From NCBI GenBank assembly GCA_022616435.1, contig JAKEET010000154.1, forward strand, positions 1-64,000: a DNA stretch of 64,000 nucleotides, given 5' to 3'. Both the position numbers and the translations under genes were made by a program. Origin of the DNA: Gemmataceae bacterium (GTDB lineage: Bacteria > Planctomycetota > Planctomycetia > Gemmatales > Gemmataceae). How positions within the stretch are numbered: position 1 is the first letter of the stretch; each line of letters begins with the position of its first letter. Under the pieces are notes generated by a model. It ran no database searches. It had not been told where the DNA came from and saw only the letters and a program-made list of their open reading frames with translations. Shown here piece by piece: positions 1,602 through 19,340 of the stretch.

Positions 1602-1920
1602 CGATTCCTCCAAAGATCGCCGCTGGCGGCTTGGCGTGTGCGGCGGCGCTTCACCGCGAACGTTCACGCGAACGCGAAGCCGCAAGCGGCAACAGGCGTC
1701 ATTGTATGGGCAGGTCGGCGGCGGAAAAGTTTGCCAGGACGGACTTTCCACACGGCAAGCTGCGGAGAGACTACCGGGTATGACGATTGAATGAAAGGAT
1801 TCTCACACAGAAATGCCATCAATTCCTGCTCGCCGTTGAGCGCAGCCCGCAGAGCGCGGCCCGCCAAGCTCCCGACGCGCGTGGTGACACGGGCGCGCTC
1901 AACGGCAAGCGACACGCGAC
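1602..1920. other. Gene-free spacer with two inverted repeats
   Basis: No credible coding sequence is seen in this 319-nt spacer. It holds two palindromes. Arms 1619-1637 and 1672-1690 match at 17 of 19 positions and belong to the same family as the repeat at 468-530. Arms 1832-1843 and 1895-1906 match perfectly over 12 bp. The moxR promoter should lie here on the minus strand, but no convincing -35/-10 pair stands out. Confidence 0.6.
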
Positions 1921-3033
1921 TTACCGTTGCCAGATGGGCAACGTCCCCTTGTCCAGTTGCATGATCGTGCAGAACACCGCGGTCGAGTAGACCGGGCCGA
2001 CACTGAAGCCGCCGCCGCCGGACCAGCTGCCGTCGGCGTTCTGCATCTGCACGAGGCGGTCGAACAGGTTCTTGCGGTAGGCGCTCCAGGTGACGCGCTG
2101 GTCGGCCGGCGTCGAGCCGAAGAAGCGCTCCCAGCCGTCGTCGCCGAGGATGTAGACCGACTGGGCGTAGTAGAAATGGGTGTACTCATCGTGCATCGCC
2201 GAGCCGGTGACCGGGATGGCGGTCTGGCAGAAGCGGAACCACTTCTTGACCAGGTCGTCCTTGTACTCGCCGGCGCTGAACAGGCAGGCGATGGCGGCCG
2301 CCGTCAGGGCGGGGCGTTCGCCGCCGACCGGGGCGCCGAAGCCGCCGCGGCCGAGGCTGTAGACCACGCCGCCGCGGGCGGTCGTCGATTTCTTCAGGTA
2401 ATCGTAGCCCTTCTTGACCACGTCCTTGGGGACCGGGATGCCGGCGTTCTTGCAGGCCCGCAGCGCCTGCATCTGGGTGATGGTGACCGAGCCTTCGTCC
2501 TGATCGTGGCCGTCCTTCGCCGACGTGTAGAACCAGCCGCCCTTCGTCGATTGGGCGTTGGCGATGTATTTCACCGCGCGGGTCAGGATGTCCCTGAGCC
2601 GTTCGCGGCGCTCCTTCTCATCTTCTTCGCCGTAGACGCACGCCAGGAACAACGTGCCGAAGCCGTGGCCGTACATGTAGCGGCCGGTCTCGGTCGGGTG
2701 GTCCGGGTTGCCGACGAGGCCGTCGCGGTTGTTGCCCTTCATGCTGCGGGCCATGAGCCAGTCGGCGGCGGCGCGGATGTTCTTGGCGTACTGGCCTTCG
2801 CGCACGGTGCTGCCTTCCATGAGCATCGCCAGCCCGCCGAGGCCGGTCATCGACACCGGGTATTGATCGCCGTTGGCGCCCCAGTGGCCGTCCTTGAACT
2901 GCTGCTTGGCCAGGTATTTCAGGCCTTTCTGCACGGCGCCCCGGTATTTCTCCGGGATTTCGTCGGCCCGCGCGGTCAGCAACGGGAGGGTGGCGATCAC
3001 GGTCAACACGCCGACGGACCACTTCATGCGCAT
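1921..3033 (-). CDS. Secreted prenyltransferase/squalene-oxidase-repeat protein
   Basis: A 370-residue exported protein with a signal peptide (hydrophobic stretch ending TARA, cleavage near residue 23). The mature part shows repeated alpha/alpha-toroid motifs typical of the prenyltransferase and squalene oxidase repeat superfamily: GLKYLAKQQFKDGHWG near the start, ADWLMARSMKGN, AVKYIANAQSTKGGWFYTS, and LVQMQNADGSWSGGGGF near the end. Planctomycetes carry many such secreted copies of unknown substrate, so a role in hopanoid synthesis should not be assumed. The ATG at 3033 was chosen because AGGAG lies 8 nt upstream; the frame is open six codons further. It follows the large propeller gene on the same strand. 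Confidence 0.85.
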   Translation of the reverse strand: MRMKWSVGVLTVIATLPLLTARADEIPEKYRGAVQKGLKYLAKQQFKDGHWGANGDQYPVSMTGLGGLAMLMEGSTVREGQYAKNIRAAADWLMARSMKGNNRDGLVGNPDHPTETGRYMYGHGFGTLFLACVYGEEDEKERRERLRDILTRAVKYIANAQSTKGGWFYTSAKDGHDQDEGSVTITQMQALRACKNAGIPVPKDVVKKGYDYLKKSTTARGGVVYSLGRGGFGAPVGGERPALTAAAIACLFSAGEYKDDLVKKWFRFCQTAIPVTGSAMHDEYTHFYYAQSVYILGDDGWERFFGSTPADQRVTWSAYRKNLFDRLVQMQNADGSWSGGGGFSVGPVYSTAVFCTIMQLDKGTLPIWQR

Positions 3034-8820: not shown

Positions 8821-8946
8821 GATGGGGCGGCGCTCACGGAGTGAAAGGCGACAATACGGCAAACTGAGACACTACCCGATTTCTCTAGGAGCCGGCGGCC
8901 CGATCGCGCATAATATGAACGGCACGATAGCTATTAGGGGGGCGTC

Positions 8947-10281
8947 ATGAAGCGTTTTTGCGACGGCGTCCGGCGACGCGACTTTCTCCGCGTCGGCGCG
9001 GCCAGCGTGTTCGGGTTCAACTGGACGTTGCCGCACGTGCTCCACGCTCAGCAAGCGGCCCAGCGGGCCGGCCGCTCGACGCGCGATGTCTCGCTCATCT
9101 TCCTGTATCTCAAGGGCGGGCTCAGCACCATCGATTCGTGGGACTTGAAGCCCGATGCTCCCGCCGAGTTCCGCGGCGAGTTCCATCCGATCGCGACCAA
9201 TGTCCCCGGCATCCGCATCGGCGAGCACCTGCCGCGCTGCGCCCGGCAGATGGACAAGTTCGCCCTGATTCGTTCGTTCCGCCACCATAATTCCGATCAC
9301 GGCCCGGCCGACCACTACATGCTCACCGGCTATTTCCCGCAGGCCGGCTTCAATCCGAACCTGTCGCCGAACAACCAGCGGCCGGCGCACGGCAGCATCA
9401 TCGCCCGCAAGCTCGGGCCGCGCGGCGGCGTGCCGCCGTACGTGTGCCTGCCGCAGATGCACGCGAGCGCCGGGCCGGCGTACCTGGGCTCGACCGCGGC
9501 GCCGTTCGTCATCGACGCCGACCCGAACGCGCCGAACTTCGTCGTCCCCGATATCGTGCCGCCGCACCTGCTGGCGGCCGAGCGGCTGGAGGCGCGGCGT
9601 GAACTGCTCCGCCAGCTCGACCGCTACCGGCAAGCCGCGGAGGTTCGGGCCAATCGCCAGGCCCGCGCCGTCAGCGATTACCAGCGCGAGGCCTTCAACC
9701 TCATGGTCTCGCCGGCGGCGCGGCGGGCGTTCGACATCCATCAGGAATCCGGCCGGCTGCGCGACGAATACGGCCGCAACACGCTCGGCCAGTCGTGTCT
9801 GATGGCCCGGCGGCTGGTCGAGGCCGGGGTGCGATGCGTGACCATCGATCACAGCAACTGGGATACCCACGACAACAACTTCGCCACGCTCCGTCGCAGC
9901 CTGCTGCCGGCGCTGGACGGCGGCCTGTCCACGCTGTTCCGTGATCTCGCCGACCGCGGCCGGCTCGACACCACGCTGGTCGTCGTCACCGGCGAGTTCG
10001 GCCGCACCCCGCGCATCAACCGCAACGCCGGCCGCGATCACTGGGGCCCGGCGTTCACCGTGGCCCTGGGCGGCGGCGGCATCCGCGGCGGCCGCGCGCT
10101 CGGCGCCTCCGACGCCCGCGCCGAGCGTCCCGCCGGCGACCCGCACGGCCCGGAGAACCTCGCCGCCACCATCTATCATCTGCTCGGCATCAACCCGCGC
10201 GAGGAGTTCTACACGCCCGACGGCCGGCCGGTGCAAATCGTCAACAACGGCCGGATGATCGACGGCTTGCTGCAGGATTGA
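8947..10281 (+). CDS. DUF1501 domain protein with Tat-type leader
   Basis: A 444-residue member of the DUF1501 family, an alkaline-phosphatase/sulfatase-fold group that is greatly expanded in planctomycetes. A twin-arginine-like leader RRRDFLRVG is at residues 9-17. Family landmarks are FLYLKGGLSTIDSWDLKP, the HHNSDHGPADHYMLTGY segment, and the C-terminal TLVVVTGEFGRTPRINRNAGRDHW motif region, where the last part is typical metal-site sequence. In many planctomycetes DUF1501 genes pair with DUF1549/DUF1553 cytochrome-like genes; here none is adjacent. The biochemical activity of the family has not been settled. The ATG at 8947 is the first start and places the leader correctly. Confidence 0.92.
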   Translation: MKRFCDGVRRRDFLRVGAASVFGFNWTLPHVLHAQQAAQRAGRSTRDVSLIFLYLKGGLSTIDSWDLKPDAPAEFRGEFHPIATNVPGIRIGEHLPRCARQMDKFALIRSFRHHNSDHGPADHYMLTGYFPQAGFNPNLSPNNQRPAHGSIIARKLGPRGGVPPYVCLPQMHASAGPAYLGSTAAPFVIDADPNAPNFVVPDIVPPHLLAAERLEARRELLRQLDRYRQAAEVRANRQARAVSDYQREAFNLMVSPAARRAFDIHQESGRLRDEYGRNTLGQSCLMARRLVEAGVRCVTIDHSNWDTHDNNFATLRRSLLPALDGGLSTLFRDLADRGRLDTTLVVVTGEFGRTPRINRNAGRDHWGPAFTVALGGGGIRGGRALGASDARAERPAGDPHGPENLAATIYHLLGINPREEFYTPDGRPVQIVNNGRMIDGLLQD

Positions 10282-10357
10282 TTTTCCAATCTGTCCGGTC
10301 AGGTTGGAAACCTAAGCCACAGTATCGAGGCGGGCTGCTCCGTTGCTGGAGTTCGCC

Positions 10358-10891
10358 ATGAGCGCCGAGGTGAGTTTCAGCGTCAGTTTGCTCATCACGC
10401 TGGCGATGACGTCGGCCGCCGCGTGTTTCCTGTGGCGCTTCGTTGAACCGGCCCTTTCCGACTACGCCGGCAATCGCGCGCGCGGCCGCTGCTGGGCCAT
10501 GGTCTGCTCGGCCTTCATCGTCCTGCTCCCCCTGTTGGTGCTGACCTTCGATCTTGATCCCAGTCCTGCGCATCGCTCGTGGTTATTCGCGGTGGTGGCG
10601 CGGATGCGCTGGCCGCTGCTGTCCATGTTCATTGGGACGCTGATGATCGCCGCGATCGCGCTGTCGCTGCACGTGCCGCGCGAAGCGCCCATGAGCCGGG
10701 CGGAGTTCGACGACCGGAAGCGTCTTCTGAGCAAGGTCGAAACGCTGCGCGCTCGCGAGCTGCTCAGCCGCCTCGAGAGCACGCCGGCGGTCAATCCCAA
10801 GGAGCTCGACGACCTGAATCGGCTGGTGGACAAGATCCAGGAGGTGCGACCCCAGCGCGGCGGCCGCGGCGAGGCGCATTCGGTGAATTGA
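10358..10891 (+). CDS. Small membrane protein of unknown function
   Basis: A 177-residue protein with three predicted membrane segments (about residues 7-25, 46-64 and 85-107) followed by a charged, probably helical C-terminal tail of about 65 residues rich in Arg, Glu and Leu. I do not recognise a family. The layout suggests an inner-membrane anchor with a cytoplasmic coiled-coil-like tail. The ATG at 10358 was chosen because GGAG lies 7 nt upstream; a TTG five codons earlier has no such site. It is followed 45 nt later by another small gene on the same strand, but no shared role can be read from that. Confidence 0.65.
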   Translation: MSAEVSFSVSLLITLAMTSAAACFLWRFVEPALSDYAGNRARGRCWAMVCSAFIVLLPLLVLTFDLDPSPAHRSWLFAVVARMRWPLLSMFIGTLMIAAIALSLHVPREAPMSRAEFDDRKRLLSKVETLRARELLSRLESTPAVNPKELDDLNRLVDKIQEVRPQRGGRGEAHSVN

Positions 10892-18163: not shown

Positions 18164-18463
18164 ATGAGCCGATCGCTCAAAAAAGGCCCGTATGTCGATG
18201 AAAGGCTGCTGAAGAAAGTGGAGCGGCAGCAGCGCGGCAACCGCGAGCCGATCAAGACCTGGTCGCGCGATTGCACCGTGGTGCCGGATTTCATCGGCTG
18301 CACCTTCCTGGTGCACAATGGCCGGCAGTTCATGAAACTGTTCGTGACCGAGGACATGGTCGGGCACAAGCTGGGCGAATTCGCCCCGACCCGCCTGTTC
18401 CGCGGCCACTCCGGCGGCCGCGCCAAGGCCGCCGCGGCGGGCGCAGCGCCGCCTGCCAAGTGA
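18164..18463 (+). CDS. rpsS: 30S ribosomal protein S19
   Basis: S19 sits in the head of the small subunit and contacts S13. The 99-residue product begins [20 protein letters not shown] and contains [36 protein letters not shown] and [15 protein letters not shown], all typical. The tail is extended by an Ala/Pro-rich stretch ([11 protein letters not shown]). It is separated from rplB by the terminator-like hairpin, and is followed 34 nt later by the interrupted initiator tRNA gene and not by rplV. Confidence 0.95.
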
Positions 18464-18497
18464 TACTCCGCGACGAACATCGCGGTGGATGATGGAT

Positions 18498-18914
18498 CCC
18501 GGGGTGGAGCAGTGGTAGCTCGCCAGGCTCGAACCCGAGATTGACCCATGGACACCAAGCGTGTTCATTGCTACGCAAGTCAGATCTACCTGGTGGAATC
18601 TGACAAGCGGCAGCGCAAGCCTCGATCCGCCAGCTATCGAGACGCTTGGGAGTTGATCTCCGAATGGGCTGCACGGGTGGAAACGCTCGTGTGACACCTG
18701 TCAAAGTCGGGAAAGCCTCCGGCGGTGGTAATCCCGAGCCAAGCTCCAGGAAGGCCTGGAGAAGGTGTAGAGACTTGACGGCAGGCGCCTTCGCAGCCGG
18801 CAATGGCTGCATGGCGAAGGGAAAGTCCAGACCACAAACCGGCCTGGCCGGGCAGCGAAAGCTGTGGTGGTATGCATAACCTGGAGGTCGCAGGTTCAAA
18901 TCCTGCCCCCGGAA
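18498..18914 (+). tRNA. Initiator tRNA-Met (CAU), split by a group I intron
   Basis: The exons are 18498-18529 and 18875-18914 (72 nt spliced). The cloverleaf is complete: acceptor CCCGGGG with CCCCGGA, leaving the C1-A72 mismatch that marks bacterial initiator tRNAs; D-stem GAGC/GCTC; anticodon stem CCAGG/CCTGG with loop CTCATAA; T-stem GCAGG/CCTGC with loop TTCAAAT. The discriminator is A914 and CCA is not encoded. The intron falls between U33 and C34. The gene lies between rpsS and rplV on their strand, so it may be co-transcribed with ribosomal proteins and need both intron splicing and tRNA end processing from that mRNA. Confidence 0.92.
18530..18874 (+). ncRNA. Group I intron (IC3-like) in the initiator tRNA gene
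   Basis: This 345-nt intron lies between tRNA positions 33 and 34 and ends in G, as group I introns require. Core elements are visible: P-like AATCCCGAGCCAAG (18730-18743), P5 CTCCAGG/CCTGGAG (18744-18750 with 18755-18761), the R element AGAGACTTGACGG (18769-18781), P7 GACTT/AAGTC (18772-18776 with 18823-18827), P8 CCTTCGC/GCGAAGG (18788-18794 with 18814-18820), and a GAAA-tetraloop hairpin (18853-18864). The core resembles cyanobacterial tRNA-Leu introns. P1 is less clear: CUCG/CGAG across the splice site would put U33 opposite A, not the usual G. No homing-endonuclease gene is present. Confidence 0.88.
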
Positions 18915-18928
18915 CTTCAAGGGACCCC

Positions 18929-18959
18929 GACTCCCGAAGTCGCCACGACTTCGGGAGTC
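18929..18959. repeat. 14-bp perfect hairpin between the tRNA and rplV
   Basis: GACTCCCGAAGTCG (18929-18942) pairs exactly with CGACTTCGGGAGTC (18946-18959) around a 3-nt loop. It starts 15 nt after the mature tRNA 3' end. The core is shared with the rplD-rplW palindrome. It could define the tRNA 3' trailer or protect the downstream mRNA end. Confidence 0.8.
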
Positions 18960-18986
18960 TTGATTGAGGAAATCATTGAGGAAGTC

Positions 18987-19340
18987 ATGGAGTATCGCGC
19001 CAAGCACCGGTTCGCGGACATGTCGGCCCGCAAGGTCCGGCCGTTCGCGACGCTGATCCGCGGCCGCGCGGCGGACGAGGCGCTGGAGTTGTTGCGCTTC
19101 TATCCGAACAAGGCGGCGCGGCTCCTGGAGGACGTGTTGAAGAGCGCGCTGGGCAACGCCGAGGACCGCGGCGCCCGTGACGTCGATGAGCTGGTGGTCA
19201 CGGAATCGCGCGTGGACGGCGGGCCCATGATGAAGCGGATCATGCCGCGGGCGCGCGGGTCGGCGTATCCGATCAAGCGCCGCTATGCCCACGTGATCAT
19301 TGCCGTCTCCGACTTGGCGGAAGAAGAAGCGGAGACCTAA
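18987..19340 (+). CDS. rplV: 50S ribosomal protein L22
   Basis: L22 lines the exit tunnel. The 117-residue product has MEYRAKHRFADMSARKVRP, LLRFYPNKAARLLEDVLKSA and the beta-hairpin ESRVDGGPMMKRIMPRARGS. The ATG at 18987 is used because GAGGA lies 6 nt upstream; the frame is open to 18864 but that part is tRNA exon and hairpin. The tail ends acidic (DLAEEEAET). Confidence 0.95.
   Translation: MEYRAKHRFADMSARKVRPFATLIRGRAADEALELLRFYPNKAARLLEDVLKSALGNAEDRGARDVDELVVTESRVDGGPMMKRIMPRARGSAYPIKRRYAHVIIAVSDLAEEEAET

What the first reader, a model, noticed from the sequence alone, without database searches (positions are those of the whole stretch)
18498..18914. Initiator tRNA-Met interrupted by a 345-nt group I intron
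The exons 18498-18529 and 18875-18914 fold into a perfect initiator tRNA with a C1-A72 mismatch and CAU anticodon. The break lies between U33 and C34, and the intervening sequence has P, P5, R, P7, P8 and S elements like those of cyanobacterial tRNA-Leu introns. All start-codon recognition would depend on this splicing unless another initiator gene exists. Such introns are known in some cyanobacterial tRNA genes; one in a planctomycete S10 operon seems little described, and I cannot verify novelty.
Basis: partly seen in the sequence, partly recalled or inferred. Interest (0 to 1): 0.9.

Follow-up and report, generated by a model that had tools for sequence, protein, structure and literature searches.

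The report
Group I intron in initiator tRNA
In a planctomycete bacterium, the only start-codon tRNA gene found is interrupted by a self-splicing-type RNA intron that has lost its mobility enzyme; this is a new example of an element first described in cyanobacteria, and related copies turn up here across many bacterial phyla.

Summary
Removing 18530-18874 (345 nt) gives a complete initiator tRNA-Met(CAU), with C1:A72 and A11:U24. Intronless planctomycete relatives carry the same exons, contiguous and identical, at the same place between rpsS and rplV. The insert is a group I intron. It matches Rfam Intron_gpI (E 4.5e-8, though below Rfam's gathering score). A 33-sequence alignment supports its P2-P9 core, with 97.7% of cells paired and 35 of 51 pairs changed on both sides. 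It is not a tRNA-Leu intron. It belongs to the tRNA-fMet lineage whose mobile members encode the PD-(D/E)XK homing endonuclease I-Ssp6803I. A Gemmataceae relative (677 nt) keeps that enzyme intact. The window copy has lost the catalytic part and keeps a 48-codon C-terminal remnant, so it is probably no longer mobile on its own. No second initiator gene was found in the 79%-complete genome, nor in 50 other genomes with the same insertion, so translation start probably depends on splicing. Such introns have been known since 1994 in cyanobacteria. A scan found 101 here, from about fifteen phyla. This is a new member of a known kind.

The parts
18498..18529 (+). 5' exon of initiator tRNA-Met, positions 1-33, ends in U33
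   Evidence: identical and uninterrupted in relatives
18530..18874 (+). group I intron, 345 nt, ends in omega-G
18526..18529 (+). P1 exon strand GGCU, U33 at the splice site
   Evidence: sequence; pairs with 18667-18670; GGGC of the guide invariant in 33 introns
18664..18670 (+). internal guide: AUG (18664-18666, P10 with anticodon CAU) then GGCU (18667-18670, P1)
   Evidence: sequence plus invariance; the pairing itself is inferred
18548..18694 (+). 48-codon ORF: MDTK start fused to the C-terminal end of an I-Ssp6803I-like PD-(D/E)XK homing endonuclease; catalytic part deleted
18672..18691 (+). P2 hairpin
   Evidence: 7 of 7 pairs with changes on both sides
18697..18785 (+). P3 (18697-18702 with 18780-18785), P4-P6 between
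18772..18827 (+). P7 (18772-18776 with 18823-18827), guanosine-binding helix by homology
   Evidence: 100% paired in 33 sequences, one covarying pair
18786..18816 (+). P8 (18786-18791 with 18811-18816)
18832..18870 (+). P9 region: closing helix 18832-18835 with 18867-18870, two inner hairpins
18875..18914 (+). 3' exon of initiator tRNA-Met, positions 34-73 (CCA not encoded)
18164..18463 (+). rpsS (S19), upstream neighbour
   Evidence: Pfam PF00203 E 1e-34
18987..19340 (+). rplV (L22), downstream neighbour
   Evidence: Pfam PF00237 E 1e-32

Best explanation
An initiator tRNA-Met gene that has long sat between rpsS and rplV in these planctomycetes was invaded, at the U33|C34 bond of its anticodon loop, by a group I intron of the tRNA-fMet/I-Ssp6803I lineage. 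The intron should fold in the precursor, pair its guide GGCU with the 5' exon GGCU (U33 with G), be cut at U33 by a guanosine bound in P7, and ligate U33 to C34 after omega-G. This would release a 72-nt tRNA to which CCA is added. The element once encoded a PD-(D/E)XK homing endonuclease that spread it into empty tRNA-fMet genes. In this copy the catalytic part is deleted, so it is a fixed, splicing-only resident. As no second initiator was found, splicing is probably essential for translation initiation here. Shown by sequence: exons, boundaries, empty sites, core structure, endonuclease remnant, single copy in the assembly. Inferred: splicing itself, P1/P10 pairing, essentiality, past mobility.
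For: Spliced exons give a full tRNA-Met. Relatives have the uninterrupted identical gene between rpsS and rplV. RF00028 E 4.5e-8, the only match in the genome. Core helices: 97.7% of cells paired, 35 of 51 pairs changed on both sides, covariation 0.457 against 0.159 in shuffles and at most 0.091 when slid. Nearest introns all lie in tRNA-fMet at the same bond. L138 encodes an intact I-Ssp6803I homologue (2ost, E 1e-62; PDDEXK_5, E 1e-48), and the window ORF matches 2ost 110-149 at E 8.4e-10. One initiator match in the own genome; none intact in 50 other intron-bearing genomes.
Against: The score is below Rfam's gathering threshold, and no transcript or splicing assay is available. The genome is 79% complete, so a second initiator could lie in the missing part; by my count about one in eight class genomes with a match has two or more. 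P1 and P10 rest on a short guide with two G-U pairs and could not be tested by covariation, because the exon never varies among fMet introns.
Confidence: 0.93

Rival explanations
1. The interrupted gene is a dead copy: the intron no longer splices and another initiator gene in the unassembled fifth of the genome does the work.
For: Genome only 79% complete; some relatives have two initiators; the endonuclease is already broken.
Against: Every position invariant among 33 introns is kept; both exons are unmutated relative to intact genes; 0 of 50 genomes with this insertion hold an intact initiator.
Confidence: 0.04
2. A real group I intron, but not self-sufficient in the cell: it needs a host protein to splice, or splicing is used as a control on initiation. 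(A variant of the best explanation, not exclusive of it.)
For: Its P1 is weak and closed over an insert of about 137 nt between U33 and the guide; some group I introns need protein helpers (review PMC3984707).
Against: Compact, complete core; tRNA-fMet introns of this lineage are described as self-splicing (title of Biniszkiewicz 1994, cited). No sign of a control element was found, but none was searched for in depth.
Confidence: 0.15
3. The split is an assembly join or an attachment-site half left by an integrated element, not an intron.
For: tRNA genes are common integration sites; 23 viral contigs hold only the 3' half of an initiator.
Against: Both halves are present on one strand, and 345 nt with a covarying group I core and the correct U...G ends lie between them; the same arrangement is in two other genomes at the same locus, L103/G211 and L138.
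Confidence: 0.01

Closest known systems
tRNA-fMet group I intron of Synechocystis sp. PCC 6803 with I-Ssp6803I (655 nt; PMC1995217; Biniszkiewicz 1994, Bonocora and Shub 2001 as cited there and in PMC8450103)
   Same: Same host tRNA, anticodon region, related endonuclease gene; the sister intron L138 encodes an intact homologue of I-Ssp6803I (E 1e-62)
   Different: Planctomycete host; 345 nt; endonuclease catalytic part deleted; gene lies inside the S10 operon
Gemmataceae intron L138 (677 nt, JAKEHV010000165.1) and Planctomycetota intron L103 (356 nt, JACPZP010000046.1)
   Same: Identical exons, same S10 locus, 75-78% identical introns
   Different: L138 keeps the whole endonuclease; L103 has a similar deletion with different end points
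Planctomycete tRNA-Ile2(CAU) introns at U33|C34 (L069-L072, L265)
   Same: Same bond relative to the CAU anticodon, similar core and 3' end
   Different: Separate clade (100/96); different exon and guide; no endonuclease remnant seen by eye
Cyanobacterial-type tRNA-Leu(UAA) introns
   Same: Group I intron in an anticodon loop; general core
   Different: Different bond and tRNA; two local Leu(UAA) introns (L068, L263) fall outside the window's group

Membership tests
Group I intron | Conserved catalytic core P3-P8 with P7 | tested here: met
   RF00028 E 4.5e-8, 37.7 bits, full model 1-253 (below the 50-bit curator cut-off); covariation
Group I intron | U before the 5' splice site pairing with a guide G, and a terminal G in the intron | tested here: met
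   U18529, G18667, G18874 by sequence; guide GGGC invariant in 33 introns; pairing inferred
Group I intron | Guanosine-started self-splicing | not testable with these tools
   needs RNA
[quoted passage not shown]
   exact bond of the Synechocystis intron not checked
tRNA-fMet intron lineage (I-Ssp6803I type) | Descends with the other tRNA-fMet introns | tested here: met
   100/98 with L185, L261, L138, L103
Mobile intron with active I-Ssp6803I-type endonuclease | Complete PD-(D/E)XK endonuclease gene | tested here: not met
   only C-terminal residues 110-149 remain; not filed as a mobile intron
Bacterial initiator tRNA | CAU anticodon, C1:A72 mismatch, A11:U24 | tested here: met
   sequence
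Bacterial initiator tRNA | Three G-C pairs 29-31 with 39-41 | tested here: inconclusive
   A29-U41 here, G-C at 30 and 31; relatives with CATAACCT share this, so it is a clade variant of a usual, not universal, feature

The most novel reading that the evidence does not exclude
The 48-residue endonuclease remnant is not debris but a kept peptide. Ten partly deleted introns, from several phyla, keep the last 29-47 residues and none keeps only the front. In the window the start codon is back in frame with the tail, and over 27 codons it differs from the intact relative by 5 silent and 1 replacing codon. It could bind the tRNA gene or the intron and act, for example, as a repressor or splicing helper.
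Probability: 0.06. Interest if true: 0.55.

Novelty: new member of a known kind. Interest (0 to 1): 0.35.

Why it matters
It shows that a cell can entrust what looks like its only start-codon tRNA to a self-splicing-type RNA, far outside cyanobacteria. The scan found the same insertion in about fifteen phyla, with no backup initiator in any of 50 genomes tested, so many 'missing' initiator tRNAs in annotations are probably interrupted ones. The set also holds intact, partly deleted and endonuclease-free introns at one site, a ready-made series for the life cycle of homing introns.

Tried and rejected
Default ARAGORN and the Rfam gathering cut-off find nothing, the first because introns are not sought, the second because the score is below the cut-off. 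I thought the intron might have moved in from the local tRNA-Ile2(CAU) introns, which share the bond and 3' end; the tree puts them in a separate clade. I thought the kept endonuclease tail might double as RNA hairpins; three hairpins visible in the window are not kept in relatives (58.6% paired, against up to 42.3% when slid, and 97.7% for the core), so this is rejected for those hairpins. I took the 23 viral hits for possible intron carriers; my search found no 5' half in any, so they are more likely attachment sites.

Full report
What is there. Bases 18498-18529 and 18875-18914 are the two halves of an initiator tRNA. Joined, they are called tRNA-Met(CAT) by ARAGORN with every stem formed. 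The features that mark a bacterial initiator are present: C1 opposite A72, A11:U24, and G-C at 30-40 and 31-39. The third G-C pair (29-41) is A-U here, as in planctomycete relatives whose initiators read CATAACCT. The 345 bases between the halves start after U33 and end in G.

Proof of the boundaries. Relatives in the same family and order carry the identical 33-base and 40-base halves without anything between them. In 14 intronless relatives the intact gene lies between rpsS and rplV, as in the window (Pfam S19 upstream, L22 downstream). So the intron entered a tRNA gene that was already inside the S10 cluster. The exact boundary follows from comparison with these empty sites, up to one ambiguous C that the group I rule resolves.

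It is a group I intron. Rfam's Intron_gpI matches 18650-18830 end to end with E 4.5e-8, and nothing else in the 6.4-Mb genome does. The score, 37.7 bits, is below the curators' 50, so I tested the structure independently. I aligned 33 tRNA-fMet introns from the tail of the endonuclease gene to the intron end and counted a P2-P9 structure that I wrote out by hand. 97.7% of cells pair, 35 of 51 pairs show changes on both sides, and the covariation score is 0.457 against 0.159 in shuffles and at most 0.091 for slid versions. P7, the guanosine-binding helix, is paired in all 33, with its one variable pair changing on both sides. The guide is AUG-GGCU at 18664-18670: GGCU pairs with the 5' exon GGCU with U33 opposite G at the cut, and AUG can pair with the anticodon CAU as P10. 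Because the exon never varies, P1 and P10 are inferred.

Which lineage. They come from Cyanobacteriota, Nitrospirota, Omnitrophota, Bacteroidota, Rhodothermota, Chloroflexota, Planctomycetota, Chlamydiota, Armatimonadota, Elusimicrobiota, Methylomirabilota, Pseudomonadota, Thermodesulfobacteriota, Actinomycetota, Melainabacteria and Patescibacteria-type lineages (names; many are metagenome bins, so single assignments may err). In a tree of 106 cores the window groups with three planctomycete tRNA-fMet introns (L103, L138, L261) and a Chloroflexi one (100/98). The planctomycete tRNA-Ile2 introns form a separate clade (100/96), and the two local tRNA-Leu(UAA) introns fall elsewhere (the bootstrap had not fully settled). 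Other planctomycete tRNA-fMet introns (L162, L201) also fall elsewhere, so the lineage probably entered planctomycetes more than once.

The endonuclease. The 677-nt sister L138 encodes a 149-residue homologue of I-Ssp6803I (2ost, E 1e-62; Pfam PDDEXK_5, E 1e-48). The window ORF 18548-18694, MDTKRVHCYASQIYLVESDKRQRKPRSASYRDAWELISEWAARVETLV, matches only residues 110-149 (E 8.4e-10); the catalytic part is gone. L103 (356 nt) lost nearly the same part, but with other end points, which suggests separate deletions. Ten partly deleted introns all keep the tail. Part of the reason is plain: the last codons overlap the guide and P2. For the rest I tested three hairpins and found them not conserved. 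In the 27 tail codons the window differs from L138 by 5 silent and 1 replacing codon, while L103 differs from L138 by 6 and 5. The simplest reading is that the window's deletion is recent.

Is splicing needed for life here? Only one initiator-like 3' half exists in the own assembly. The assembly is 79% complete, so this is not proof. But in 50 other genomes with an interrupted initiator none has an intact one by the same pattern, and in the class sample second initiators are uncommon (about one genome in eight by my count). The dependence is therefore likely.

Novelty. Group I introns in tRNA-fMet are published for cyanobacteria (Synechocystis and Gloeobacter; Scytonema and Dermocarpa; I-Ssp6803I). 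tRNAscan-SE 2.0 reports 36 genomes whose fMet or Ile2 gene is missed because of such introns (PMC8450103). I found no paper on planctomycete ones in the open library, which misses most subscription journals. So this is a new member of a known kind. What may be little described is the breadth, the absence of backup initiators, and the decay series.

Noticed in passing
L033:1366-1785 and 1812-3001 (own genome, contig C160 about 8860-10500): An array of tRNA-like halves with inserts looks like a set of YrlA-type Y RNAs (RF02553; 68.1, 38.9 and 23 bits, all below the gathering score of 69) just upstream of a TROVE/Ro60-like protein.
   Followed up: partly
L037 (own genome, contig C19:46983-49016): Dense array of 14 ARAGORN-called tRNA genes at a contig end, several with low tRNA scores; perhaps phage- or plasmid-borne.
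   Followed up: no
L226, L233-L254 (planctomycete family f3): Most sampled genomes of this family have a group I intron; most of those read lie in tRNA-Ile2(CAU) after CAU, the site I recall for Azoarcus.
   Followed up: partly
L230, L247; L225, L228, L229, L232, L239: Group I introns in what look like tRNA-Asn(GUU) and tRNA-Lys(UUU) genes of planctomycetes; the other five seem to lie in 23S rRNA genes.
   Followed up: no
L049-L064 and window 18164-19340: Initiator tRNA gene embedded in the S10 cluster between rpsS and rplV, conserved across several planctomycete families.
   Followed up: yes
L053-L064, matches: Planctomycete initiators with CATAACCT have A29-U41 in place of the first of the three G-C pairs.
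   Followed up: no
window 18928-18958: Perfect 14-bp inverted repeat (GACTCCCGAAGTCG...CGACTTCGGGAGTC) between the tRNA and rplV, not seen in the 13 relatives compared; terminator or processing hairpin unknown.
   Followed up: partly
L202-L224: 23 viral contigs hold an initiator tRNA 3' half from C34 on, with no 5' half found; likely attachment sites of phages that integrate in tRNA-fMet.
   Followed up: partly
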